Source: Psychrobacter submarinus
GTDB lineage: Bacteria; Pseudomonadota; Gammaproteobacteria; Pseudomonadales; Moraxellaceae
Assembly: GCF_904846685.1 (NCBI RefSeq)
Contig: NZ_CAJHBQ010000001.1
Location: 1,054,001-1,118,000, forward strand
DNA: 64,000 bases
Direction of reading: 5' to 3'
Part shown: positions 37,323-51,689 of the stretch, piece by piece
How the letters are laid out: each line of letters opens with the position of its first letter
Numbering within the stretch: position 1 is the stretch's first letter
Position numbers and translations under genes: made by a program
The notes under the pieces: generated by a model
What the model was told of the DNA's origin: nothing
Seen by the model: only the letters and a program-made list of their open reading frames with translations
Databases searched by the model: none

Positions 37323-40300
37323 TTAGTTATCACTTAGCTTAATAACTTTGGAGAAGCCAAAACCATTTCTATTAACAGAAACTGTTGACCCAAGTTCGAA
37401 CGCTTGGTTAAAGTCTATAATATAAGTATTGAAGCCTGCGTTTGGCTGATTACTTGATGACTGACCATTAATTGTTACATTATAGTTTGGCGAATAAGGA
37501 GATAGAGTGACTCTAGTACGTGACTCGTTCTCATTAATTGTTACGCTCAAACTATTAGTACATCTTGCGCCACCATCACCAAACGGACTGGTATTACCAA
37601 TCCAAGGTGTTATCAGGTCGTCACCACTAACGGATAAGTCGTCTACTGCTACCGGTAGCTGGAAGTTAATACTCTGGGTGTTTTCGCTTCCGTTGACAAA
37701 GGTAGAGGCGTCGAACCGTACTTTCACCCAGTTAGAGTAACGTAGTGGGTAGCGAATCTCAAAGTCTGCACGGCCTTCATCATCTGTAACAAACGAATAA
37801 CCGTCATCTGAGAGCGTACCACCAATGATAGTCACGGGATTGATAGCTTCGAGTGTACCATTTAGATTTCTATCTTCATTTAAAATAGGGTCTGAGTCTT
37901 GGTCTAAAGTGTAGTTATAGTTGGCATCTTCAGTAGGATACCAATCAGAACGTAGTGGTACTGGCGTTTTTTCAGAGAATACTTGAGGCTCAGGTGTAGT
38001 GGTTTGAATCACATTGCCAAATTCATCAAGCTCATCGATATCAGCAGCTTGATAAGTCGTTGTACTATTTAATAAACAATATACGCCTTGAGCATATTCC
38101 GTTGCATAAGACTTAATTGATACCTCTTGATCCGCTACAGCACGACCAGAGCCATCCATGACTGATATCGATCCACGTACCGTATAGTAAATATCATCAG
38201 AAGATAACTTATTAGCGAATGCTAAAGTAGTATAGACCGCTTCTTCTGAGACAGTAATATTAGTGGTCTTACTACCGATATTGGCATCATCTTGCAATAA
38301 GCGTGCGTTGATAATCACCCCGCCGATAGGCGAGCTGGCATTGGCTTGATAGACGACACGCGCCTCACCTCTACTATCTGTTACTGCTGTTGCAGCCGAT
38401 AAGCGGCCCGCTGAAGAATCTGACGCACGACTGAATACGACCGTTTGCCCTTCGACGGGTACATCATTTTCATCTTTGACCGTCGCGACAACTTCAGTGC
38501 TGGTGCCAGGAGTGATGACCGATTTAACCGCTTGGAACAGCATTTTTGCAGGGGTCGTCGCACGGAAGCGTGTATCGATTGTCGTTTGGTATTTAAGTGT
38601 GCTATTAGTACCCGGAGCGAATATACCAAGTACTTTAGCTTCTAATACTGTGGTGCCTGCTAATTCAGAACGTAAGCGCACAGGTATGGTAATGATATTT
38701 TCTGCGATATCGGTAGCTCTAATTCTTCTGGTGAGAATAACGTTATCACTACCATTGCCGTTGTTAAATTGTCCAAGAGTGGTCTGAACTTCAAGAGTCT
38801 CACCGATAAGGGCTTGTGCTTGTGCTGCACTATCCGCGCGAATCTGTACATTGATGGTTTGTTGCTTATTAACATCATACACATCTTCGATATCTATAAA
38901 GCTGATACCGGCTTGCGAAACTTTAACCAAATCAATGCTAGTAAGACTGCGCTGAGTATTAACAGTACCTAAAGCTCTAACAAATACACGCAGATTACCA
39001 TTATTATCAAACGTTAAGTCACTCTCATTTATTTCAAAGCTGGCTTCGCCACTAGCATTAGTAATAACTTCTTCAGTAGAGATCACCTCTCCAGCTGCAT
39101 TAACCAGTTCTATATCAGCATTAGCTATAGCGATTCCTGCACCATCTACTAGAGTTGTACTGATAGTAGTCGATTCGCCATCTTTGAGCTGAGTTTCTGA
39201 AGCTTCAAGCGTAATGCTTGTGCCAATCGCTGATAAGCTTAGTGATTTTTCTTCGCGTACTTGTAATGTGACATCACCATTGGCATCGTATCTTGGTGTA
39301 ATAATCTTGGCATTAATAACCACACTGTGATTTAAACGAGCATCTACCGTGTTTGCTGCTAATAAAATACCAACATCAATTTTGCCTTCAGCATCAGTAC
39401 TGACAACACTAGGGGTGGTTAAAGCCGCACCACTTGACTCTAAATTTTCTATGCTTAACTGTACTGGAACGTTAGCCAATACTCCGCCACTACTATCAGT
39501 TACGCGGAAGGTTGCATTGGTCTGATCACCGCCAGTATTTAGAGTCACTTTATCGGCAGAGACTAAAATCTGATAATTATCAATCGTTGCAGTGTCGACA
39601 GCTACGATATAGCTTTGTACCAATTCAGTGTTTTCAGCGGTCGTAGTCGTTGCTGTCAGTCCAATACCTTTCTCTAGAATCGCTTGATTAACATTTGCGC
39701 CAGGCTCTAGAGTCAAGTCGAAAGTAGCCACCCCATCACTGTTAGTGGTAGCAGTGCCATTGGCTGCGACACTAACGCCAGTCTCAACAGGGTTATCAAC
39801 GTTCAAGCGTACAACACGACCAGCAATACTGCCTTCATTATCTTTGAGTCTTACAAACACCTTAAAGGTATCGCCTTTGGTATTGACAACCTTATTGGCG
39901 CCAATAGTTAGACTTTCTTGAGTACCAGTGATATCTGGAGTTTGCGTGTTGACTGTAGCGCTTTTAGCAGTAATGTTGCCACTAGTGTCGGCGGCTGATA
40001 AACCAACAACAAAACTGCCACCAATATCCTGCTTTTGCTTATCCGTTAGATTATTAGGTACAGCAAGAGTAAATATAGCTTTGCCTGAATCATCAGTAGT
40101 CTGGCTGCCGCCTGACACTAGCGTCACACCATTACTAGCCGCAGTTGCCGGCAGCGCTAAGAAGACTTTTTGACCCGTTACTACATTGCCTTTACTATCC
40201 TTGGCGATAACCTCAATCTGAGTTTCGCCGCCATTTAAATTAAGCAGTTTTGATGAAGTCGACGATAAAGAGATAGCAGAAGCCATAGACTGCACTTTGA

Positions 40301-43046
40301 TTTTGACCTGTTGCTCTTTACCAGTCAGCGTCTCGGTCACTATCGCTGTCAGTGGCGCTTTGTTTAGAGCAGCTTTTTGCTCAGCATTCAGATCATTTGG
40401 TACAACTACATCGAAGCTAACTAGACCATTTGCACTAGTAGTTGCAGTAATTTTTGATGAGCCGATTTGACCGTTCACCGTTAGCAATCCTGCTAAAGAT
40501 TTGTTGGTAAATTCTAATCTGATAGGTTGATTAGCGATTTGCTCACCAGAGTCCTGATCGTTTAATTGCGCTTGTATGCTAGCACTACTGCCGACGTTAT
40601 TTAGAATATAACCGGCTTGATTGTCGATATTATTAGTAGCATTGAGCAGATTCAAGGAGACCGCTGGCGTAATGATAGTGACTTTGGTAGCAGCAGAATT
40701 ATAGACAATACCGTTTTCGACATAAGACAGTTGATAGTTAACCCCAGTCTTTTTAAGATCAGCACGCTGGGCAGCGGTTAGATTGCTTGGTATATTAACC
40801 GCAAATAGCGCGTTACCACTAAAGTCTGTCGTCGCCGATTGCGTAACAGTGACGCCATAACTAAGTGCTTTGGCGCCTAATTGAATAGTAATGTTTTTAC
40901 CTGTTACTGGTTTAGCATTACTGTCTTTGGTTGTGAGCTTGACGTTGATGTTGCCATCACCACCAAACTCGCTAATGCTCGGGGTAGCAATAGAAGCAAA
41001 CTGAATGCTAGTCACTGGTTGTTGAACCTCAACCTCTTGAGAAGTCTTAGATTGCGTTCCATCATTATCCGTTAGGACGGCAGTATAGCGAATTCCTGAC
41101 GCAACCAATTTCTCACGCTGATCAGGCGTTAGGTTTTGGTTAATAGCAATAGTGAACTCGGCGACGCCATTACTGTTAGTAGTAAGCTCATTACCGATAA
41201 TAGTAATGCCGGTACTCGTTTTATCATCTAACACTAGTTTAACTTTTCGATCTGCTGCTGCGCTGCCGTCCTGACGTTTAGCAGCAACCTGTAGCTTAAA
41301 CTGCTCATCTAAGACGCTAACGATCGCCGGTAAGCTTTGCGCTGATAATTGGATATCGCTTTGACCTATATCAGAGCCAATACGGATACTTTCACTACTG
41401 ACAGAACTAGATACACCTGACGCCTCTGTCATACTAGCCGTTAGTACAAACGCTCCAGCATTCTCTAATTGTGTTTTTTGTGCCAATGTTAAGTTGTTAG
41501 GGACGCGTACGGTATAGCTGACTTCCCCATTATTATCTGTAGTTTGTTCAGAGTTATTTTGCAGTGTTAATAGACCAGCCTTAGCTAAACCCTCGGGTAA
41601 GCTTGCAGTCACTTTTTGGCCTGCAATGATGCCGCCTCGTTTGTCGTTAACTCGGAAGCTAATGACGGCACTACCGCCTGAACTAGATAGCTGTTTTTTG
41701 CTGCTTTCATTAAAATTAATCTTGTACTCTGCAGCCGGCAAATACACAGCGCTAGTCGCTGTTTTAGTAGTAGTTGAACGGTTAGGTTCTGTTAAGACGA
41801 CCGTATAACTAATACCTTCTTCGATAAGCGTTTTGCGGTCATCTGCGTCCACAGTATTAGCAACATTTAAGGTTACATTGGCTTGCCCTTGAGCATTTAG
41901 AGTTACTTTATTGGTATTTAAGCTGACTCCAGTCACTGCATCGTTAAGCTTGATAGTGGCTGTCGCTCCATTGATAGTCGTTGGTACGTTGCTATTTTTG
42001 GCAGTAGCACTGATAGCAATCGTTTGGCTATCACCATAAGCGCTAAGACGACTCGGACTAGTAGTTACGCTTATCGCATAATCAGAAATAGGTAGCGCTG
42101 CTTTAAACTCACCTGTAGTTTCTTTCGTTGCACCACTGTTTTCTGCAATATTGATAGTATAAGCTATGGTTTTGTCCACTAGCGCCGCACGATCAGCATC
42201 TGATAATTTATCATCTACTTGAATGGTAAAAGTAGCTAGACCATTAGTATCAGTAACTTTCTTACTGCCACCAATGATGGCAACGCCTTTGACATTCGCG
42301 ATGCCTAAGCCCACTGCGACGTCTTTGACGCGAGCGCCCTGATCATTTTTTGCAACAACACTAAGCGTTGCAGTATCACCGTATACATTTAAGACATTGT
42401 TAGAGACAGAGCTAGTCGCCAACGAAGTGCTGATATCAAGCTCGCTTTCGACGACTTGCGTGCCATCGCCGCTGCCTTGCTTACTAACACGCACGGTATT
42501 AGTCTGCTCGACTTGATCATCTTCACCTTTATTAGCCGTAGCTATTAATTTGAAACCATCATTTAACAATGCTGCTTCATCTGTAACTGCTTGCGGATTG
42601 AGTTTCAGCTTATATACTGCATTACCTTCGTTATCTGTCACCTGAGTGCTGGCACCTTCGATAGTAATACCATTACTCTCAGACCCTTCTACCATTAAGC
42701 TAACTTCTTTATTAATCATTGCCGCTGAAGTTGCTGTTTGTACCGCTTTGACCGTAACCGTAAACACGGTTTCTTCATCTGTTAACTCTATAACATTCGG
42801 GCTTACGGTGAGCTTCTGAAGAAAAAAATCAGGTTCCTCAACTGGCGTTTGTTCCTCACCATCACCATTATCATCTCCACTATTACCATTGTCACCTGTA
42901 CCTGGATTATTTAAATCTGGTTTTGGCGGAAGTATATCTGTACCGCCATCCTCACCACCGCCGCCGCAGCCTGCTAAGGATAACGCTACAGACAGCGCCG
43001 TGAACTTAAATAATTTAGAGCTAAGAGGTAGTGAGCTATAGAACAT
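37323..43046 (-). CDS. Giant surface lipoprotein with tandem bacterial Ig-like repeats
   Basis: A 1907-residue predicted outer-surface lipoprotein. I chose the ATG at 43046 (GGAG upstream; product MFYSSLPLSSK), not the ORF start 48 bases earlier. A lipobox LAGC with Cys27 is followed by a poly-Gly stretch and an acidic Asp/Gly/Asn linker. From about residue 80 some eleven tandem modules of roughly 100-125 residues repeat, each ending in a signature like TDxxGxAxFxxxVPxNLTxxQK. Three divergent Ig-like modules follow, including a Cys-containing, Tyr-rich region near 1660-1720. The modules resemble Big_1/invasin-type domains. Adhesion or biofilm function is inference. Single gene with its own terminator. 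No C-terminal beta-barrel or autotransporter domain is seen, so anchoring is by the lipid. Confidence 0.85.
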   Translation of the reverse strand: MFYSSLPLSSKLFKFTALSVALSLAGCGGGGEDGGTDILPPKPDLNNPGTGDNGNSGDDNGDGEEQTPVEEPDFFLQKLTVSPNVIELTDEETVFTVTVKAVQTATSAAMINKEVSLMVEGSESNGITIEGASTQVTDNEGNAVYKLKLNPQAVTDEAALLNDGFKLIATANKGEDDQVEQTNTVRVSKQGSGDGTQVVESELDISTSLATSSVSNNVLNVYGDTATLSVVAKNDQGARVKDVAVGLGIANVKGVAIIGGSKKVTDTNGLATFTIQVDDKLSDADRAALVDKTIAYTINIAENSGATKETTGEFKAALPISDYAISVTTSPSRLSAYGDSQTIAISATAKNSNVPTTINGATATIKLNDAVTGVSLNTNKVTLNAQGQANVTLNVANTVDADDRKTLIEEGISYTVVLTEPNRSTTTKTATSAVYLPAAEYKINFNESSKKQLSSSGGSAVISFRVNDKRGGIIAGQKVTASLPEGLAKAGLLTLQNNSEQTTDNNGEVSYTVRVPNNLTLAQKTQLENAGAFVLTASMTEASGVSSSVSSESIRIGSDIGQSDIQLSAQSLPAIVSVLDEQFKLQVAAKRQDGSAAADRKVKLVLDDKTSTGITIIGNELTTNSNGVAEFTIAINQNLTPDQREKLVASGIRYTAVLTDNDGTQSKTSQEVEVQQPVTSIQFASIATPSISEFGGDGNINVKLTTKDSNAKPVTGKNITIQLGAKALSYGVTVTQSATTDFSGNALFAVNIPSNLTAAQRADLKKTGVNYQLSYVENGIVYNSAATKVTIITPAVSLNLLNATNNIDNQAGYILNNVGSSASIQAQLNDQDSGEQIANQPIRLEFTNKSLAGLLTVNGQIGSSKITATTSANGLVSFDVVVPNDLNAEQKAALNKAPLTAIVTETLTGKEQQVKIKVQSMASAISLSSTSSKLLNLNGGETQIEVIAKDSKGNVVTGQKVFLALPATAASNGVTLVSGGSQTTDDSGKAIFTLAVPNNLTDKQKQDIGGSFVVGLSAADTSGNITAKSATVNTQTPDITGTQESLTIGANKVVNTKGDTFKVFVRLKDNEGSIAGRVVRLNVDNPVETGVSVAANGTATTNSDGVATFDLTLEPGANVNQAILEKGIGLTATTTTAENTELVQSYIVAVDTATIDNYQILVSADKVTLNTGGDQTNATFRVTDSSGGVLANVPVQLSIENLESSGAALTTPSVVSTDAEGKIDVGILLAANTVDARLNHSVVINAKIITPRYDANGDVTLQVREEKSLSLSAIGTSITLEASETQLKDGESTTISTTLVDGAGIAIANADIELVNAAGEVISTEEVITNASGEASFEINESDLTFDNNGNLRVFVRALGTVNTQRSLTSIDLVKVSQAGISFIDIEDVYDVNKQQTINVQIRADSAAQAQALIGETLEVQTTLGQFNNGNGSDNVILTRRIRATDIAENIITIPVRLRSELAGTTVLEAKVLGIFAPGTNSTLKYQTTIDTRFRATTPAKMLFQAVKSVITPGTSTEVVATVKDENDVPVEGQTVVFSRASDSSAGRLSAATAVTDSRGEARVVYQANASSPIGGVIINARLLQDDANIGSKTTNITVSEEAVYTTLAFANKLSSDDIYYTVRGSISVMDGSGRAVADQEVSIKSYATEYAQGVYCLLNSTTTYQAADIDELDEFGNVIQTTTPEPQVFSEKTPVPLRSDWYPTEDANYNYTLDQDSDPILNEDRNLNGTLEAINPVTIIGGTLSDDGYSFVTDDEGRADFEIRYPLRYSNWVKVRFDASTFVNGSENTQSINFQLPVAVDDLSVSGDDLITPWIGNTSPFGDGGARCTNSLSVTINENESRTRVTLSPYSPNYNVTINGQSSSNQPNAGFNTYIIDFNQAFELGSTVSVNRNGFGFSKVIKLSDN

Positions 43047-43529
43047 ATCTGGGACTCCGCACGAGCGACAATTTATTTGACAAAGCAAACACAAAGAATG
43101 AGGTACCTATGAGCTATAGGCAAAAATAAACTAAGAATGTAATAATATACTACATATTAATAGTTTGTATTGATTTTATCACAGTAACTTTACTGAATTT
43201 TGTCGAAACTTACAATCAATAATTAGATTTTAAAGTCACTTAATCATTCCCCTGTAGATGCAAATTCAAGGTATAATAAGCCCCATTGAGATCGACTATT
43301 ATTGTAAAATAGTTTGAGTATTTGACTATTTTATGGTATAAATGTCGCCTTTAAATTTTCTGAATTGGTCACTCTGTTATTTGCCTTTAGATAACAGTAA
43401 TGCCAGCTCAACCTTCATATAGTTTTGTTTGGTGCAAAGATGCCGCTGCTGTGTCCATGCCGCATATTCGCGCAACTTGCCCAGACTGGTATGGGACAAA
43501 CCCCATACCTCATAGATTAGGAGTTCGCC
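43047..43529. other. Spacer between the Ig-repeat gene and rpmB
   Basis: About 480 bp. The part near the Ig gene is AT-rich without landmarks; the part near rpmB contains a promoter at 43314-43342 and a leader of roughly 180 bases. A TATAAT at 43272-43277 has no matching -35. No gene seen. Confidence 0.4.
43314..43342 (+). promoter_or_regulatory. Predicted sigma-70 promoter for rpmB-rpmG
   Basis: TTGAGT and TATAAA are separated by 17 bp. Transcription would start near 43350, leaving a ~180-base leader before rpmB, which could carry ribosomal-protein autoregulation. Based only on hexamers and spacing. Confidence 0.5.
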
Positions 43530-44131: not shown

Positions 44132-44443
44132 TTAACTATAATGCGTCGGCTCTTTGTCGTAGACATGGGCATGCCACTGGCTCATCTGCTTTTGCATAAT
44201 GACCTGAATAGCGGCATGAATCATGTGCTGACCGATAGATTGCGTATCGCTGCCCAATAAGTCTTTTAGCTTATCGGAGAAATCAATCGTCATCAGCGCT
44301 TCTTCATTTTTATCCGAATCACGCAGTAATAGCGTACCATCATCAGCCTCAATCAGCTCAAGCGTCGTCTCTTTGGCAAACCCTGAAAACGGATCAGTAT
44401 TATCAGTCTCCACTTCTATCTCATTATCAATATCGTATGGCAT
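44132..44443 (-). CDS. Hypothetical acidic protein
   Basis: A 103-residue soluble protein, very acidic in the first 40 residues (DIDNEIEVETDNTDPF, LELIEADDGTLLLRDSD), then helical with HMIHAAIQVIMQKQMSQWHAHVY. No known domain recognised. First of three small minus-strand genes ahead of rpe in gene order. Gene-like composition supports it being real. Confidence 0.55.
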   Translation of the reverse strand: MPYDIDNEIEVETDNTDPFSGFAKETTLELIEADDGTLLLRDSDKNEEALMTIDFSDKLKDLLGSDTQSIGQHMIHAAIQVIMQKQMSQWHAHVYDKEPTHYS

Positions 44444-44573
44444 CTCGTGTTTCCTTATTATCCCGTAGCTCGCTGTCTTGAGAACTAATGATTTAATCCT
44501 CTACAGCGCTCGAGAAAAGTCTTCGTTACTTCATACAATGGACGCTTTAGCTTTCAATTTCAAGGGCTAATAT

Positions 44574-44885
44574 TCAACGCCAGTAGCGCAGTTTGGCGAT
44601 GGTAAATAAGAAGGCTACAAACATCCCTAGGTAATACATGAGCTTGAGCTCTAAAGTCGGATCGCGATATTTAAAAGGTAAAGCCACCACAGCGGTCGCC
44701 GTTGGCAATATTAGCAGCATTAGTAGCCAGTTCTCTATCACATTGAGCCAACCCTCTTGGCCCGTGCCTTTACTTAATCCTGCAAGCCCTAATAATAAGC
44801 AGGCAATAATAAGACTGGTAAATAGACCATTCGGTAACTCTTTAGGGTAGATAACATTGGCAATGCGAGTGGGCATAATTTGCAT
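44574..44885 (-). CDS. Hypothetical three-segment membrane protein
   Basis: A 103-residue protein with hydrophobic segments at about residues 21-38, 51-68 and 83-98, starting at 44885 or at the ATG nine bases later (44876). No family recognised. It probably makes up a small membrane module with the neighbouring 117-residue gene. Confidence 0.55.
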   Translation of the reverse strand: MQIMPTRIANVIYPKELPNGLFTSLIIACLLLGLAGLSKGTGQEGWLNVIENWLLMLLILPTATAVVALPFKYRDPTLELKLMYYLGMFVAFLFTIAKLRYWR

Positions 44886-44962
44886 ACAAAAACTCAGTCG
44901 TTTTTATGATCTAAGCTAGTAATAGCTTATTAAAGGTAGGAGAATTATGGCGTAAGACAAGA

Positions 44963-45316
44963 TCAGCTATAAGTGCCCATGATCCATAATAATGAGATGC
45001 AAGAGGTCAGATAGCCCAAACTTATCGCATTCCAGCCCTCTATCTGCGTGCCATTGAGCTTATTAAAGATCTTTGATCCGAGCCAAAACAGTAAGGGAAT
45101 ACCAATGATAAAAGCGGGAACTAGCACTGCCGCATGAAGCATAACCTCGCTGACATCGTGACCTACTATCAGGCGAAAGCCGTAGCCTGCTGAGCTTAGT
45201 ATTAAAGCAAAAACAGCTAAACCAATAGTAATGCCTTTGGGCACTAAGCTGCGCCGCTTAGACGCAGGAGCGTCAGCCTTTAAACTCGGGTTTTGGCTAT
45301 TGATTGGCGTAGTCAT
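44963..45316 (-). CDS. Hypothetical three-segment membrane protein
   Basis: A 117-residue protein with a polar start (QNPSLKADAPASKRRS) and hydrophobic segments at about 29-48, 61-80 and 97-115. No known family. It lies between rpe and the 103-residue membrane protein gene; no shared promoter can be shown. Confidence 0.55.
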   Translation of the reverse strand: MTTPINSQNPSLKADAPASKRRSLVPKGITIGLAVFALILSSAGYGFRLIVGHDVSEVMLHAAVLVPAFIIGIPLLFWLGSKIFNKLNGTQIEGWNAISLGYLTSCISLLWIMGTYS

Positions 45317-45462: not shown

Positions 45463-46149
45463 CTACTCGCCTGCTTTTGCAAGCTCAGCACGCATAGCAT
45501 CAATAGCGACTTTATAATCGTCTTGGTTAAAGATAGCTGAGCCGGCAACAAACATATCAGCGCCTGCCTCCGCGATAGCGCGGATATTATTGGCTTTGAT
45601 ACCGCCATCGACCTCTAGCCTGATATCGCGGCCGCTTGCATCGATACGCTGACGTACTTGTCGTACCTTATCCAACGTGCCTTCGATAAATGACTGTCCG
45701 CCAAAGCCAGGATTGACACTCATAAGCAAAATTTGATCGACCTTGTCCATCACATAATCTAGATAGTGTAGCGGTGTCGCTGGATTGAACACTAAGCCGC
45801 ATTTCGCGCCGCCGTCTTTGATCAGCTGCAATGAGCGATCGATATGATCGCTGGCTTCAGGATGAAAGGTAATAACGCTAGGATTGGCTTGTAGGAACTG
45901 CTCAATCATACCATCGACAGGCGCTACCATTAAGTGCACGTCGATAGGCGCGTCAATACCATAATCACGCAGCGCCTGACAGATCATGCTACCAAAAGTT
46001 AAGTTCGGTACATAGTGATTGTCCATGACATCGAAATGAATAACATCGGCCCCTGCTGCCAAGACGTTTTCGACCTCCTCGCCTAATCGAGCAAAGTCAG
46101 CGGATAAAATAGAAGGGGCGATTAAGTACTGCTTATCAGGACAAATCAT
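45463..46149 (-). CDS. rpe: Ribulose-phosphate 3-epimerase
   Basis: Interconverts ribulose 5-phosphate and xylulose 5-phosphate in the pentose phosphate pathway. The 228-residue TIM barrel shows [17 protein letters not shown] near residue 10, [16 protein letters not shown] near 40, [14 protein letters not shown] near 142, and [12 protein letters not shown] with the phosphate-binding glycines near 180. Metal ligands H38, D40 and H71-type positions are present by motif. A DUF2805 gene follows upstream on the same strand. Confidence 0.95.
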
Positions 46150-46532: not shown

Positions 46533-47426
46533 TTAGCTTAGCTGCGCTTGACGATAATGGTGCCAAATGTGATCTTCGATGACCGTTTGGATAAAATAGT
46601 AACTGTGATCGTGACCCGCTTGATAACGTAGGGTCAAAGGCTGCTGCGCGTCTTTACAAGCCTGTTGCAGCTTTTCGGTTTGTAGTTGCCCCTCACTCAA
46701 AAAGTTATCGGCAGCGCCTTGGTCTACCAATAAGCTGGCGTACTGCTGTCCTGCCTTTGCTATAACCTTAGCGGCATCAGCTTGTTGCCATAATGACTTA
46801 TCGTCACCAAAATACTGGGTATAGGCCGCTTGTCCCCAATCCGATTCGCTCGCAGCGCACACCGGCGACAACGCTGAGACACTAACGAACTTACTAGGAT
46901 ATTTAAAGCCTAATAGTAATGCACCATGACCGCCCATAGAGTGACCCGTAATACCGATACTATTCACCGGAAACTCTTGACGCACTAAGTCATAAAACTC
47001 ATCGACGATGTAACTTTGCATATTAAAATGCTCTGACCATGGCGCCTCTACCGCGTCGACATAGTAGCTTGCGCCCTGCCCGACAAAGTAACGCTCATCA
47101 TCTGCCACATCAATATCGTCGCTACTACGAGGAGAGGTGTCTGGGGCGATAAAGATGACACCAAGCTCGCTGCATTTTTGTTGGAAGTGCGCTTTATGGG
47201 TGACGTTATCAGCATTACAAGTCAATCCTGATAAATATAGTATCGCCGGACAGCGCTGACCGGCTAATGCCTCATCTGGCAAATAAATACTAAAGGTCAT
47301 GGGCGTGTTAGTCGCTGATGACTCATGGCGATAATAGTGCTGCTCGCCATCAAAGCAGCGATTAGCACTGATTTGTGTCAATTTTGAGCTGACAGATAAC
47401 TTTTGCTTAGAATACTGACTCATCAC
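46533..47426 (-). CDS. S-formylglutathione hydrolase
   Basis: Esterase that finishes glutathione-dependent formaldehyde detoxification by splitting S-formylglutathione. The 297-residue alpha/beta-hydrolase shows the nucleophile motif GHSMGGHGALL with Ser near residue 154, YLSGLTCNADN in the oxyanion region, VDQGAADNFL with the acid, and GHDHSYYFI with the catalytic His. A second ATG lies three bases downstream of the first. The glutathione-dependent formaldehyde dehydrogenase partner is not in this window. Confidence 0.92.
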   Translation of the reverse strand: MMSQYSKQKLSVSSKLTQISANRCFDGEQHYYRHESSATNTPMTFSIYLPDEALAGQRCPAILYLSGLTCNADNVTHKAHFQQKCSELGVIFIAPDTSPRSSDDIDVADDERYFVGQGASYYVDAVEAPWSEHFNMQSYIVDEFYDLVRQEFPVNSIGITGHSMGGHGALLLGFKYPSKFVSVSALSPVCAASESDWGQAAYTQYFGDDKSLWQQADAAKVIAKAGQQYASLLVDQGAADNFLSEGQLQTEKLQQACKDAQQPLTLRYQAGHDHSYYFIQTVIEDHIWHHYRQAQLS

Positions 47427-47667: not shown

Positions 47668-49077
47668 TTAGTTTGTGTCAACTATAGCAGATGGCGGCAG
47701 TGCGCGCTGCTGATCAAATAACACCTGCTCAAAAGCGGGCAACGCCGTTTTCATTAAGCTGCCCACAACCATCTGCGGCTCTGACGGCTCAAACCCCATC
47801 ATACTTTCGCGCTCTTGTATGCGTAAGCTTGCATCTTTAAAGGCAGCGGCAAAGCTGGTGTTTTTACGTAGGCTCTCCGCGAAGAACGCTTGACCAAAAT
47901 AAGTCATCTCAGCGCTATTGGTACAGCCAAATGACATCTTATCCGCTGCAGATGCGGTAATAACAACTGTGGTTGGTGAGGTCAGCTCGTCAATAAAAGA
48001 GCCTGAATAGCAAGCCGATACGATAATAACCCGCCAGCGAATACCGGCCTCGTCCAAAGCCTCGCGCAGCCACGCCGACTCTAAATTATCCATTGCTACA
48101 GGTGCGTTTGCCAATTGCAGAATATCTTCGTTACCGTGTGACGATAAGGTGAGCAGCAACACATCTTCATCGCTATTCATTTGCTCACCGATCTTTTTTA
48201 GCCCTCGTAAAATACTGGTCTTCGTCGCTATCGGCTCATCCAGCCAGCTATAGCGGTTATTAATTAAAGACAACGAGCGCCCACTTATACCAAAACGCAC
48301 ATCAAACAGCTCGCGAGCATGATTGATCTCAGAGCGAAAAACCTCTTGCCCGGCGAACCCTGCAACGCCCATAAAGTACCATTCTGTCTTACCTAAGATG
48401 CTAGCATCAATACTCGCTAAGGCGTTTTGTAGCAGCTCAGGCTGCTTATAAATAGCCGCTTCTTCTAGTATTGGCTCTACGGGTATGGGTTTGAAAATAG
48501 GCTGATCGGCGACGTTTTTTTGCCAAATAGTCAGCAGGGCCACAGCTCCTATCAGCACGATAATGCGCTCCCACCAAGGCGTTCGCAAGCGCTGCGAGAA
48601 GATCCATAACAGTGCGAGAGTTTGCCATAAAAACAGTACTAAAAATAATACCGGTAAAAACGAGTAACTCCAATCTGGTAGCCAGTTTTGAGTGCCAAAA
48701 AACTGCACTAAGCTTTGTAGTAACGCCGAGATACTATCTGCCACTAACCATAATACCGCTGGCACAAACAATAAGCTTTGATTGCCAGATCGCCGCGCTA
48801 GAATAATACCTGCTAGCAGAATAATCACCGGCCATATCAGGTAACTGACTAAGCCTTGCTCATTAAAAACGCTACCACTTTCTGCCGCTAGCCAAGAAAA
48901 AAGTACATTACTCCCAAGCGCTATTAGAGCAAAACAAGCAAACTGTACAAAGGTAGGCTTTACCCAAGAAAAAGCACGCGTAGAGCCAATCAGCATCCAA
49001 ATAGCGGCAATGATATTGGCTGCAAAATTAAGAGAGAAGCGCTGAAGGGAGACGGTTTTTAGGGACGAGAGTGACAA
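47668..49077 (-). CDS. Membrane-anchored C13 (legumain/caspase-like) cysteine peptidase
   Basis: A 469-residue protein with an N-terminal membrane domain of five to six segments (about residues 15-185) and a C-terminal peptidase C13 domain. The catalytic dyad is visible: H314 in LTLSSHGNED and C356 in IIVSACYSGSF, 42 residues apart. No ATG is well placed; translation probably starts at the TTG at 49077 with GAGG nine bases upstream. C13-like domains in bacteria are rarely studied; roles in signal-dependent proteolysis or cell death are known for distant eukaryotic relatives only. Single gene; a 174-bp MITE lies directly upstream. Confidence 0.85.
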   Translation of the reverse strand: MSLSSLKTVSLQRFSLNFAANIIAAIWMLIGSTRAFSWVKPTFVQFACFALIALGSNVLFSWLAAESGSVFNEQGLVSYLIWPVIILLAGIILARRSGNQSLLFVPAVLWLVADSISALLQSLVQFFGTQNWLPDWSYSFLPVLFLVLFLWQTLALLWIFSQRLRTPWWERIIVLIGAVALLTIWQKNVADQPIFKPIPVEPILEEAAIYKQPELLQNALASIDASILGKTEWYFMGVAGFAGQEVFRSEINHARELFDVRFGISGRSLSLINNRYSWLDEPIATKTSILRGLKKIGEQMNSDEDVLLLTLSSHGNEDILQLANAPVAMDNLESAWLREALDEAGIRWRVIIVSACYSGSFIDELTSPTTVVITASAADKMSFGCTNSAEMTYFGQAFFAESLRKNTSFAAAFKDASLRIQERESMMGFEPSEPQMVVGSLMKTALPAFEQVLFDQQRALPPSAIVDTN

Positions 49078-49180
49078 AGACTTAAACCTCTATCGAGCCA
49101 AGAAAATGAAGGCATGGTGTACTAGCAGCTAATCATTAGCAAAACCATATTAAATAAAACAGTATTGAATAAAAATATAC

Positions 49181-49354
49181 TAGGGCGTGTCCCTACTTTA
49201 AAAATGGTGATGAAAATGAGATAAATCGCAGGCAAACAAGGAAAATAGCGAAGGTAATATCAAGATATTGACCAGCTATTTGACACCGTTTGCCAAAGAT
49301 TTAGCAATTTTTAGCCCATTTAGTCATAAACGCTTGAATTAGGGACACGCCCTA
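49181..49354. mobile_element. 174-bp MITE with perfect 15-bp terminal inverted repeats
   Basis: Ends TAGGGCGTGTCCCTA at 49181-49195 and its exact complement at 49340-49354. The interior is AT-rich and has no open frame, so it cannot move by itself. The outermost TA on each side may be a target duplication, giving GGGCGTGTCCC-type ends like those I recall for IS5-family elements; the family is inference. Confidence 0.82.
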
Positions 49355-49520: not shown

Positions 49521-49550
49521 AAAAAAAGGAGACCTATTACTAGATCTCCT
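49521..49550 (-). terminator. Terminator of htpG
   Basis: AGGAGATCT / AGGTCTCCT form a 9-bp stem with one G-U pair and a 6-nt loop on the minus strand, followed by seven T, 37 bp past the htpG stop. Confidence 0.75.
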
Positions 49551-49586
49551 CTGTAGCTTAACACTATAGATTCAAGCAATCTTATA

Positions 49587-51536
49587 CTAGCGCATTAATA
49601 ACTCATTAACGCGTTTGAGATAAGCGGCTGGATCATCGAGTTGGCCACCATCTGCCAGCAGCGCTTGATCAAAGATCACTTGAGCCAGGTCGTCGAACTG
49701 CTCGCTGGACTCTAACTTTTTAATCAGCGGATGCTCTGGGTTGACCTCCAAGATAGGCTGCGTCTCTGGCACTTCTTGACCCATTTGCTTGAGCATCTGA
49801 ATCATCTGCGGTGACAGCTCACCCTCTGCAGTAACGAGTATCGCAGGACTATCGACTAAGCGGTTCGATACGCGTACGTCTTTAGCGCGTGTATCTAGAG
49901 CGGTCTTTAGCTTTTCAACCACAGGCTTCATAGACTCTTGCGCCTTTTCAGCTTCCGCCTTTTCTTCCTCGTCCTGCAAGTCGCCTAAGTCCACCGCGCC
50001 TTTCGCGATATTTTGTAGTGGGGTCTCATCGAATGAGGTTAAGAAGTTCATCGCCCACTCATCAACACGGCTAGTCATCAAGATGACCTCGATGCCTTTT
50101 TTCTTAAATAGTTCAAGCTGCGGGCTGTTTTTGGCCGCTGCAAGATTGTCCGCAGTGAGATAGTAGATGGCTTTTTGACCCTCAATCATGCGGCTTTTGT
50201 AGTCTTCAAAGCTAGTCTCGACTTTGTCATTAGTGCTAGTAGCATAACGCAGCAGCTTAGCGATACGCTCTTGGTTACCCATGTCCTCGCCAAGACCTTC
50301 TTTGATGACATCGCCAAACTCGCTATAAAACTGCGCGAATTTATCTTGCTTGTCGCTGTCTTCACTATTGGCTAGGCTTGCCAGCATAGTCAAGATACGG
50401 CGCGCATTACCATCACGGATGGATTTGACATCGCGCGACTCTTGCAATAACTCTCGGCTGACATTGAGTGGCAAATCAGCTGAATCAATCACGCCTTTGA
50501 CAAAGCGTAGATACATAGGCAGTAGTTGCTCGGCGTCATCCATGATAAATACACGTTTGACATACAGCTTAAGCCCATGCTGCTGCTCGCGTGTGTACAA
50601 ATCCATTGGCGCTTTTTTGGGTACATATAATAGCTGAGTGTACTGTACGCGGCCTTCCACGCGGTTATGCGTCCACGTCAGCGGCTCATCCATGTCGTAG
50701 CTGATGTTTTTATAAAAATCGACATACTCTTCATCTTCGATCTCGGATGCTGAGCGTGTCCATAGCGCACTGGCTTTATTGATAGTTTCCCACTCATCGG
50801 TGAGTACCATCTCGCCGCCCGCAGGCGTATCACTGTCGTCGTTCTCATCTTCAACATTTTCTTGCCAGACTTCTTTACGCATCTGAATCGGCAGGCTGAT
50901 ATGGTCTGAGTATTTATTGACTAAGCGCTTAATCTTAGCACGGTCGAGGTAGTTATCCTCGCCTTCGGTGTATTCTTCTTTTAGGTGCAAGGTGATGGAT
51001 GTGCCGCGAGTTTCTTTGGTGATCGTCTCAACCGTGAAGCTACCGCTGCCATCAGATATCCAGCGTACGCCTTGCTCCGCAGGCTCACCAGCTTTACGCG
51101 ACTCAACCGTAATGGTGTCGGCCACGATAAACCCAGAGTAAAAGCCAACACCGAACTGACCAATTAATTGACCGTCTTGCTTTTGTGATTCAGATAATTT
51201 ATCCAAGAAGGCTTTGGTGCCAGACTTGGCAATAGTACCTAGATTTTCGATAGCATCGGCTTCATTCATGCCGATACCGTTATCGATAAAGGTGATGGTT
51301 TTGGCATCACTATCAACGGCAATACGGATTTTTAACTCGCCGTCATCTTCATATAAGCTGTCATCATTAGTCGCTTCAAAGCGCAATTTGTCACAAGCAT
51401 CAGAGGCGTTTGAAACCAGCTCACGGACAAAGATATCGGCATTAGAGTACAAGGAGTGCGTCACTAGATGTAGCAACTGCGCCACTTCCGCCTCAAAACT
51501 ATGTTTTTTTAATTCTGGGTTATTGTTTTCACTCAT
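49587..51536 (-). CDS. htpG: Chaperone HtpG (Hsp90)
   Basis: ATP-dependent bacterial Hsp90 that remodels client proteins. I chose the ATG at 51536 with AAGGAG seven bases upstream (product [18 protein letters not shown]); an open frame extends 16 codons further. The 649-residue protein has the N-terminal GHKL ATPase fold ([50 protein letters not shown]), a middle domain ([17 protein letters not shown]) and a C-terminal dimerisation domain. An acidic insert ([11 protein letters not shown]) lies near residue 235. Secure. Confidence 0.97.
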
Positions 51537-51689
51537 AAAGAACTCCTTCATTGGAAAGTTGAGATTAACGTAAAACAGTAGCACTAACTGAGCGTCTCAA
51601 ACTAAGAGTCTCAATTAGTGCTAGGCTGTTTATACTAATAGGGTCGCGGTCAAATATTTCAAGTTTAAAAGCCCTATAAAAAGTTAAAC

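What the first reader, a model, noticed from the sequence alone, without database searches (positions are those of the whole stretch)
47668..49077. Membrane-anchored caspase-like C13 peptidase with no obvious partner
A multi-span N-terminal domain joined to a legumain-like catalytic domain with clear His (H314) and Cys (C356). Such proteins are poorly characterised in bacteria. There is no adjacent substrate or regulator gene here, and the TTG start and upstream MITE suggest unusual expression control.
Basis: partly seen in the sequence, partly recalled or inferred. Interest (0 to 1): 0.5.

Follow-up and report, generated by a model that had tools for sequence, protein, structure and literature searches.

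The report
Membrane-anchored legumain-like bacterial protease
This is a real, well-conserved bacterial enzyme gene that joins a five-helix membrane domain to a legumain-like cutting domain predicted to face the space outside the inner membrane; it is probably the Psychrobacter version of a little-studied gene linked in a related bacterium to membrane leakiness and drug sensitivity.

Summary
The 469-codon ORF at 47668-49077 (-) encodes a membrane domain plus a Peptidase_C13 domain, with H314 and C356 as stated. It is no oddity: 90 of 100 genus genomes carry the protein and 269 of 299 family genomes the C13 family, mostly one copy. The dyad motif was intact in 110 of 110 close loci. A confident model shows five transmembrane helices, then a legumain/PIGK-type fold. 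The charge pattern puts that fold in the periplasm. More distant relatives carry the same catalytic domain behind MORN-repeat or other leaders.

The expression claim fails: the TTG start is conserved in 36 of 36 named Psychrobacter loci, and the MITE lies directly upstream in 0 of 65 congeneric loci. "No partner" is half right: fghA follows the gene in Psychrobacter and Acinetobacter, but not in the Moraxella-type or more distant loci examined.

The Acinetobacter baumannii orthologue is very probably Abrp, whose loss is reported to raise membrane permeability. The legumain Asn/Asp pocket is only partly kept. Best reading: a periplasm-facing inner-membrane cysteine endopeptidase for envelope upkeep; substrate unknown.

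The parts
47668..49077 (-). C13 peptidase gene, 469 codons plus stop
   Evidence: pN/pS medians 0.12 (membrane domain) and 0.14 (catalytic domain) over 36 Psychrobacter orthologues, synonymous sites near saturation
49075..49077 (-). TTG start codon
   Evidence: first ATG/GTG/TTG of the frame; four codons lie between it and the in-frame TAG upstream; same first start in 36 of 36 named Psychrobacter loci
49087..49091 (-). AGAGG, likely ribosome-binding site, overlapping the upstream stop at 49090-49092
   Evidence: sequence; AGAGG stands upstream of the start in all 36 named Psychrobacter loci printed
48478..49077 (-). N-terminal membrane domain, aa 1-200: helix 14-29 and five TM helices
   Evidence: AlphaFold2 models, mean pLDDT 91.2 whole protein and 89.8 for aa 1-198 alone; hydropathy of 50 sequences; no Pfam family over cut-off in the window's copy
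48886..48951 (-). TM1, aa 43-64
48787..48861 (-). TM2, aa 73-97
48691..48765 (-). TM3, aa 105-129
48589..48675 (-). TM4, aa 135-163
48505..48576 (-). TM5, aa 168-191, leading to the catalytic domain
47713..48462 (-). C13 catalytic domain, about aa 206-455
   Evidence: Pfam over aa 300-442; structural matches over about aa 230-460: legumain Z 21.9, rmsd 2.9, 215 aligned; PIGK Z 21.0, rmsd 5.8, 219 aligned
48136..48138 (-). catalytic His314 codon
48010..48012 (-). catalytic Cys356 codon
47923..47925 (-). Cys385 codon, invariant second cysteine, aligned with legumain Cys219 (numbering worked out by me from the alignment)
49181..49354 (.). MITE between htpG and the C13 gene, with 21-nt terminal inverted repeats
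   Evidence: directly upstream of the gene in 0 of 65 congeneric loci
49525..49552 (-). terminator-like stem after htpG, 12 pairs and T-run
   Evidence: pattern match only; 6 such sites found, shuffled mean 2.6
46533..47426 (-). fghA, S-formylglutathione hydrolase, conserved downstream neighbour
   Evidence: TIGR02821 343.5 bits; synteny
45463..46149 (-). rpe, ribulose-phosphate 3-epimerase
49587..51584 (-). htpG (HSP90), upstream neighbour in 36 of 36 named Psychrobacter loci

Best explanation
The gene encodes a polytopic inner-membrane cysteine endopeptidase of the legumain (C13) family. Five transmembrane helices hold a caspase-fold catalytic domain at the periplasmic face of the inner membrane. 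There His314 and Cys356 most likely cut envelope proteins, for quality control or maturation, in a way that keeps the cell envelope tight. It is very probably the Psychrobacter orthologue of the gene known in Acinetobacter baumannii as abrp. Shown by computation: the gene, the domain, the dyad, a confident fold model, wide and mostly single-copy presence in the family, purifying selection. Inferred with good support: periplasmic side, orthology with abrp. Inferred: proteolysis as the reaction, envelope proteins as substrates, ordinary housekeeping expression. Unknown: substrate, cleavage site, activation.
For: Pfam C13 and dyad; dyad and Cys385 invariant in 50 of 50, motif intact in 110 of 110. 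Model pLDDT 91.2; legumain fold Z 21.9, rmsd 2.9, 215 aligned. K+R are 344 of 2142 residues in loops assigned inside and 30 of 1383 in those assigned outside, inside higher in 50 of 50 sequences. The same catalytic domain sits behind MORN repeats in 10 of 29 aligned homologues (Pfam confirmed the two scanned; my repeat pattern in all ten), with a lipobox by regular expression in 6 of the 10. Family present in 269 of 299 genomes of the taxonomic family, nine of the 269 with two or three matches; exactly one match in 15 of 15 genomes of named Acinetobacter, Moraxella and Alkanindiges loci. A. baumannii relative 45% identical over 94% of the query, with fghA then rpe downstream as in the window. 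Reviews report that loss of abrp ('peptidase C13 family') raises membrane permeability and impairs growth.
Against: No substrate or activity is shown for any bacterial member seen here. Reviews of abrp disagree on the direction of the susceptibility change, and the original paper was not held. Ten of 100 genus genomes lack the gene and hold no other C13 match, so it is dispensable there. The abrp link rests on the name 'peptidase C13 family' plus copy number and synteny; the Abrp sequence was not seen. The loops for the charge count were set after I had seen the charge profile, so that count describes the topology and is no independent test. The P. aeruginosa lipoprotein relative, if it is PA4016 as recalled, had a nematode phenotype that a second allele did not repeat.
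Confidence: 0.55

Rival explanations
1. It is a transpeptidase (ligase) rather than a hydrolase: like GPI transamidase PIGK or plant asparaginyl ligases, it cuts a substrate tail and joins the acyl-enzyme to an amine, fixing proteins at the envelope.
For: The fold scores with PIGK (Z 21.0, rmsd 5.8, 219 aligned) and peptide ligases (such as 5h0i_B, Z 21.1, rmsd 2.7, 209 aligned) as with legumain proteases; membrane-held catalytic domain; invariant second cysteine C385.
Confidence: 0.12
2. The five-helix domain is a sensor of membrane state (lipid, LPS or stress) and gates the periplasmic protease, so the protein is a signalling protease, with an arrangement like YejM/PbgA (five TM helices plus a periplasmic hydrolase-like domain).
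For: In Psychrobacter the membrane domain is as constrained as the catalytic one (median pN/pS 0.12 against 0.14). YejM/PbgA chains appear among the weak structural matches of the TM domain (Z 4.7-4.9, rmsd 3.5-4.4, 107-115 aligned). An A. baumannii C13 gene was among the expression predictors of early polymyxin exposure.
Against: Those Z values lie in the range expected for helical bundles by chance and rank 13th, 16th and 17th; Foldseek gave no match at E 0.001 or below. Hydrophobic helices evolve slowly anyway. In the twelve aligned sequences from outside the family the domain falls to 9-18% identity.
Confidence: 0.15
3. It is a detoxification-linked enzyme working with FghA (formaldehyde stress), reflected in the conserved C13-fghA order.
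For: fghA downstream in 35 of 36 Psychrobacter loci (31 within 400 bp, four at 1.4-1.5 kb) and 26 of 30 Acinetobacter-type loci (24 within 160 bp, two at 1.8 and 3.4 kb); annotated frames overlap in A. baumannii.
Against: 0 of 14 Moraxella-type loci show it (L107 and L108 hold only 55 and 410 bases downstream) and the upstream gene differs (htpG or MTase); 0 of 22 loci outside the family; ten congeners have an fghA match without C13, in G014 only 39% identical.
Confidence: 0.05
4. It is a pseudo-enzyme or a decaying gene.
For: Broken or split copies in two lower-quality genomes, G059 and G076, and no copy in ten of 100.
Against: Dyad motif intact in 110 of 110 loci; purifying selection; G059 and G076 are 85% and 84% complete, so sequence errors are possible.
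Confidence: 0.03

Closest known systems
Abrp of Acinetobacter baumannii ('peptidase C13 family')
   Same: Very probable orthologue: same family, one place in each of three chromosome-sized records, 45% identity over 94% of the protein, fghA and rpe downstream.
   Different: A. baumannii copy starts with ATG and sits after tsaB and a methyltransferase instead of htpG; the published phenotype is for A. baumannii only. The Abrp sequence was not read here.
Legumain / asparaginyl endopeptidase (C13)
   Same: Caspase-like fold, Z 21.9, rmsd 2.9, 215 aligned; His/Cys dyad; Ser216 and Cys219 positions kept as S382 and C385 in 50 of 50.
   Different: Five-TM domain in front; no C-terminal prodomain; Asp231 position is R 31, E 8, Q 7, D 3, K 1 of 50; the Arg44 counterpart is uncertain: position 248 is K or R in 29 of 50, Arg in the window.
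PIGK/Gpi8, catalytic subunit of GPI transamidase
   Same: C13-type fold held at a membrane surface (Z 21.0, rmsd 5.8, 219 aligned).
   Different: PIGK works in a multi-subunit complex (recalled); here the membrane domain is in the same chain and no partner genes are seen.
MORN-repeat C13 proteins of other gammaproteobacteria (such as the gene in L033, a P. aeruginosa plasmid record)
   Same: Homologous catalytic domain with the same invariant residues.
   Different: Lipoprotein or signal leader plus MORN repeats replace the five-TM domain.
NCBIfam caspase_w_EACC1 (EACC1-associated caspase)
   Same: Best NCBIfam match, aa 293-398, E 1.2e-07.
   Different: 31.4 bits against a cut-off of 140, so not a member; no EACC1 partner was looked for.
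YejM/PbgA
   Same: General layout of five TM helices then a periplasmic hydrolase-like domain (recalled; weak match).
   Different: Catalytic domain unrelated; TM match not significant.

Membership tests
Peptidase family C13 (Pfam PF01650) | Profile score over the curated cut-off | tested here: met
   101.6 bits against 22.8
Peptidase family C13 (Pfam PF01650) | His-Gly ... Ala-Cys catalytic dyad, conserved in homologues | tested here: met
   H314 and C356 in 50 of 50 and 29 of 29; 110 of 110 by motif
Peptidase family C13 (Pfam PF01650) | Caspase-haemoglobinase fold | tested here: met
   model pLDDT 91.2; legumain Z 21.9, rmsd 2.9, 215 aligned
Peptidase family C13 (Pfam PF01650) | Peptidase activity | not testable with these tools
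   no biochemistry
Legumain (Asn/Asp-specific) in the strict sense | S1 residue Asp231 (residue list from PMC4357240, passages) | tested here: not met
   by the alignment its counterpart is position 396: Gln in the window, Asp in 3 of 50
Legumain (Asn/Asp-specific) in the strict sense | S1 residue Ser216 | tested here: met
   S382 in 50 of 50
Legumain (Asn/Asp-specific) in the strict sense | S1 residues Arg44 and His45 | tested here: inconclusive
   helix-1 register uncertain; position 247 is Phe in 50 of 50, position 248 is K 16, R 13, A 10, M 6, others 5 of 50 with Arg in the window
Legumain (Asn/Asp-specific) in the strict sense | C-terminal activation peptide and LSAM prodomain | tested here: not met
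   the protein ends about 14 residues after the catalytic domain
Orthologue of Abrp | Sole C13 gene, shared order with A. baumannii | tested here: met
   one place in each of three chromosome-sized A. baumannii records; one match in 15 of 15 relatives' genomes; fghA and rpe downstream
Orthologue of Abrp | Match to the published abrp sequence | not tested
   original paper not held; identity rests on the name 'peptidase C13 family'
GPI transamidase catalytic subunit (PIGK/Gpi8) | Part of a membrane complex that transfers proteins to a glycolipid | not testable with these tools
   fold similarity alone
Caspase/metacaspase (C14) | Pfam Peptidase_C14 over cut-off and better than C13 | tested here: not met
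   no C14 match listed for the window protein up to E 0.1; the A. baumannii relative passes C14 weakly (26.1 bits, cut-off 21.4) but C13 at 128.6
NCBIfam caspase_w_EACC1 | Score over the curated cut-off | tested here: not met
   31.4 bits against 140
YejM/PbgA-type five-TM domain | Structural match of the TM domain | tested here: inconclusive
   Z 4.7-4.9, rmsd 3.5-4.4, 107-115 aligned, within the chance range

The most novel reading that the evidence does not exclude
Gammaproteobacteria carry a widespread class of periplasmic, membrane-tethered C13 enzymes in which one legumain/PIGK-type catalytic domain has been joined to either a five-helix membrane domain or a MORN lipoprotein. In Moraxellaceae this common, mostly single-copy enzyme is an envelope transpeptidase: a bacterial counterpart of GPI transamidase that processes and re-attaches envelope proteins, and whose loss explains the leaky-membrane phenotype of abrp.
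Probability: 0.08. Interest if true: 0.8.

Novelty: new member of a known kind. Interest (0 to 1): 0.38.

Why it matters
A named but unexplained drug-susceptibility gene of Acinetobacter would get a topology, a catalytic dyad and a testable reaction. The alternation of two unrelated membrane modules in front of one catalytic domain makes envelope location, not a particular partner, the likely common requirement. It also warns against assuming Asn/Asp cleavage for bacterial C13 proteins.

Tried and rejected
MITE-driven expression: rejected; the MITE is directly upstream in 0 of 65 congeneric loci (29 genus loci with up to 1.5 kb upstream, one of them, L029, with 336 bases, and 36 named loci). 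L070 has copies 2.4 kb upstream and just downstream of the gene. Promoter-like matches in the region: 8 found, shuffled mean 4.3, sd 2.4.

Missed upstream ATG: rejected; only four codons lie between the in-frame stop and the TTG in the window and in all 29 genus relatives, and TTG is the first start of the frame in 36 of 36 named Psychrobacter loci.

fghA as functional partner: weak. The ten congeners without the gene each have matches to fghA and htpG (fghA only 39% identical in G014); the stretch between them, read in five of the ten, holds other genes (likenesses to nicotinate phosphoribosyltransferase and an acyl-CoA synthetase judged by eye, not searched). No other C13 match in the ten.

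Known fold or family for the five-TM domain: Foldseek no match at E 0.001 or below; best second-look Z 6.3, rmsd 9.2 over 156 residues, within chance. Pfam over 50 members gave weak matches only: best E 0.0036 in one member, CaKB in 13 of 50 with best E 0.0057, MgtC E 0.098 in the window's copy. A Yip1-like domain was my first guess; Yip1 is in none of the Pfam listings.

Mobile origin: plasmid hits were 7 records, five of them A. baumannii (three of chromosome size), phage hits 2 records labelled Acinetobacter phage (the phage hits were not opened). With presence in most of the family, not pursued.

Dropped from alignments: L059-L063, weaker matches in longer or divergent proteins, were left out of A1-A5; L032 was left out of A4. 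A4 holds 50 and A2 29 of the homologues in hand; of the 80 named loci, A4 has 36.

Lipobox pattern: it also matched one type A protein (L003) that is no lipoprotein, and in L049 it matched at an unlikely place; the MORN pattern gave one match in the type A protein L056.

Literature: a bacterial C13 mechanism was sought. In what I opened, only the abrp reports, one polymyxin expression study and a PA4016 screen bore on it. Passages seen: PMC5346588, PMC8003822, PMC11615727, PMC3406104, PMC10203620, PMC9598136 (reference only), PMC11410210, PMC10984935 (a primer name, irrelevant), PMC4872528, PMC8768575, PMC10218405, PMC4357240. All other papers were seen as listings only; PMC12626374 and PMC10838990, which also name abrp, were not opened.

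Full report
What is there. The minus-strand ORF 47668-49077 (469 codons, TTG start) is as described. Pfam Peptidase_C13 matches aa 300-442 at 101.6 bits against a cut-off of 22.8. His314 and Cys356 are correctly placed. The genome (3.01 Mb, 6 contigs) has this one C13 match; the nearest named relatives are Psychrobacter. Presence, window's genome included: the protein in 90 of 100 genus genomes; the Pfam family in 269 of 299 genomes of the taxonomic family, 249 of 274 among good-quality ones, with two or three matches in nine of the 269; one match in 15 of 15 genomes of named loci (ten Acinetobacter, four Moraxella, one Alkanindiges); over the cut-off in 32 of 369 genomes of the class. Both catalytic residues are invariant in 50 of 50 and 29 of 29 aligned sequences, and the motif is intact in 110 of 110 loci (30 genus loci with the window's own, 80 named). 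Against 36 Psychrobacter orthologues the median pN/pS is 0.12 for the membrane domain and 0.14 for the catalytic one; synonymous differences are near saturation (pS 0.63-0.84), so true ratios are lower. Two lower-quality genomes, G059 and G076, have split or broken copies.

Anatomy. AlphaFold2 on 50 sequences gave mean pLDDT 91.2, pTM 0.74: a helix at 14-29, five TM helices (43-64, 73-97, 105-129, 135-163, 168-191), then a caspase-type domain (about 206-455). That domain aligns to legumain (5nij_A, Z 21.9, rmsd 2.9, 215 aligned), metacaspase (6w8r_B, Z 21.2, rmsd 2.6, 208 aligned) and PIGK of GPI transamidase (8imy_K, Z 21.0, rmsd 5.8, 219 aligned). Lys+Arg make up 344 of 2142 residues in the loops assigned inside and 30 of 1383 in those assigned outside; inside is higher in 50 of 50 sequences. 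With five helices this puts the catalytic domain in the periplasm. I set the loops after seeing the charge profile, so this describes one topology and does not test it independently.

Support from domain shuffling. Among 29 aligned homologues the catalytic domain occurs in three settings, labelled by me: behind a multi-span domain (type A, 15), behind MORN repeats (type B, 10), or behind a short leader (type C, 4). Pfam confirmed MORN in L033 and L036, the two type B proteins scanned; my repeat pattern found 4-12 in each of the ten. Six of the ten have a lipobox by regular expression, with the caveats told under Tried and rejected. In a tree of the catalytic domain type B groups with three of the four type C proteins (support 93/80) while type A is spread; four label changes in all, 7 of 26 inner branches open, one type C row (L034) on a very long branch. 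Inference: tethering at the periplasmic side recurs with unrelated modules, so the enzyme needs the envelope rather than a certain partner.

Surroundings. htpG lies upstream in 36 of 36 named Psychrobacter loci and fghA downstream in 35 of 36, 31 within 400 bp and four at 1.4-1.5 kb. Of 30 Acinetobacter-type loci (L114-L143, including some other Moraxellaceae and one unplaced MAG) 26 have fghA downstream, two of them 1.8 and 3.4 kb away, and 29 have tsaB and a methyltransferase upstream. Of 14 Moraxella-type loci (L100-L113) none shows fghA, though L107 and L108 hold only 55 and 410 bases downstream. Of 22 loci outside the family none holds fghA at E 0.001; their neighbours vary, read from raw ORFs. 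Ten congeners without the gene have fghA and htpG matches and no other C13 match. So there is a conserved neighbour in two genera, contrary to the finding, but no sign of a dedicated partner.

Expression. TTG is the first start of the frame in 36 of 36 named Psychrobacter loci, with AGAGG upstream in all of them; by nearest-start choice it is also the start in 10 of 14 Moraxella-type loci, the others having two GTG and two ATG. It is an inherited trait, not a local oddity. The MITE (19 near-full-length copies in the genome) sits between a terminator-like stem after htpG and the gene, and is directly upstream in 0 of 65 congeneric loci.

Specificity. PMC4357240 (passages) gives Arg44, His45, Ser216 and Asp231 as the legumain S1 residues. 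By the HMMER alignment (residue numbers counted by me from the chain positions) Ser216 matches S382 and Cys219 matches C385, both 50 of 50, and Asp231 matches position 396, which is Arg 31, Glu 8, Gln 7 (the window's), Asp 3, Lys 1 of 50. Arg44 cannot be placed surely: position 247 is Phe in 50 of 50; position 248 is Lys 16, Arg 13 (the window's), Ala 10, Met 6, others 5. A basic residue at 248 would speak for a partly legumain-like pocket in this branch. So cleavage after Asn or Asp is possible but not predicted. Invariant Glu250, Ser354 and Phe247 are candidates for a different pocket (inference).

Function. The A. baumannii relative is 45% identical over 94%, with one place in each of three chromosome-sized records, and has fghA and rpe downstream. 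Reviews name a 'peptidase C13 family' gene abrp whose loss raises membrane permeability and impairs growth (PMC5346588, PMC10203620; PMC11615727 for permeability; passages). They disagree on drug susceptibility: PMC5346588 and PMC11615727 say the knockout is less susceptible, PMC8003822, PMC10203620 and PMC10218405 read it the other way. The original was not held. An A. baumannii C13 gene was among expression predictors of early polymyxin exposure (PMC4872528, passages). For the P. aeruginosa lipoprotein type, PA4016 (identified from neighbours by recall) had a nematode phenotype in one background that a second allele did not repeat (PMC3406104, passages). Taken together: a periplasm-facing inner-membrane endopeptidase for envelope upkeep, confidence 0.55.

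Verdict. A sound observation of a real, conserved gene; the special-expression reading fails, the no-partner reading is partly right, and the cleavage specificity is doubtful. It is a new member of a known kind; none of the papers opened describes the five-helix layout in the passages seen. Interest 0.38.

Noticed in passing
window 37323-43094 (-): A 1923-codon ORF with Big_1 Ig-like, MG4 and FlgD-Tudor-like matches: probably a large Ig-repeat surface protein.
   Followed up: no
window 49181-49354: MITE family of about 175 bp with 19 near-full-length copies, 18 of them 94-100% identical to this one (itself included) and one 85%, in a 3.01-Mb genome, so apparently recently active; no source transposase was sought. 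L070 holds two copies about 84% identical.
   Followed up: partly
L110 (BMPS01000003.1): Record titled Streptomyces cinereus carries a Moraxella-type C13 protein 56% identical to the window's: a likely mislabelled or contaminated record.
   Followed up: no
L187-L191: In five of ten congeners without the gene, other genes lie between htpG and fghA; by eye they look like nicotinate phosphoribosyltransferase, an acyl-CoA synthetase and, in one genome, transposases and urease genes.
   Followed up: partly
window 44132-45316 (-): Three small ORFs (103, 103 and 117 aa) downstream of rpe have no Pfam match, yet relatives of all three follow rpe in the 35 named Psychrobacter loci that show rpe.
   Followed up: no
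L032, L125, L137, L138, L142: In L032 the annotated C13 and fghA frames overlap by 32 bp, and in the other four the two matches overlap, so co-translation is possible there, unlike the 241-bp gap in the window.
   Followed up: no
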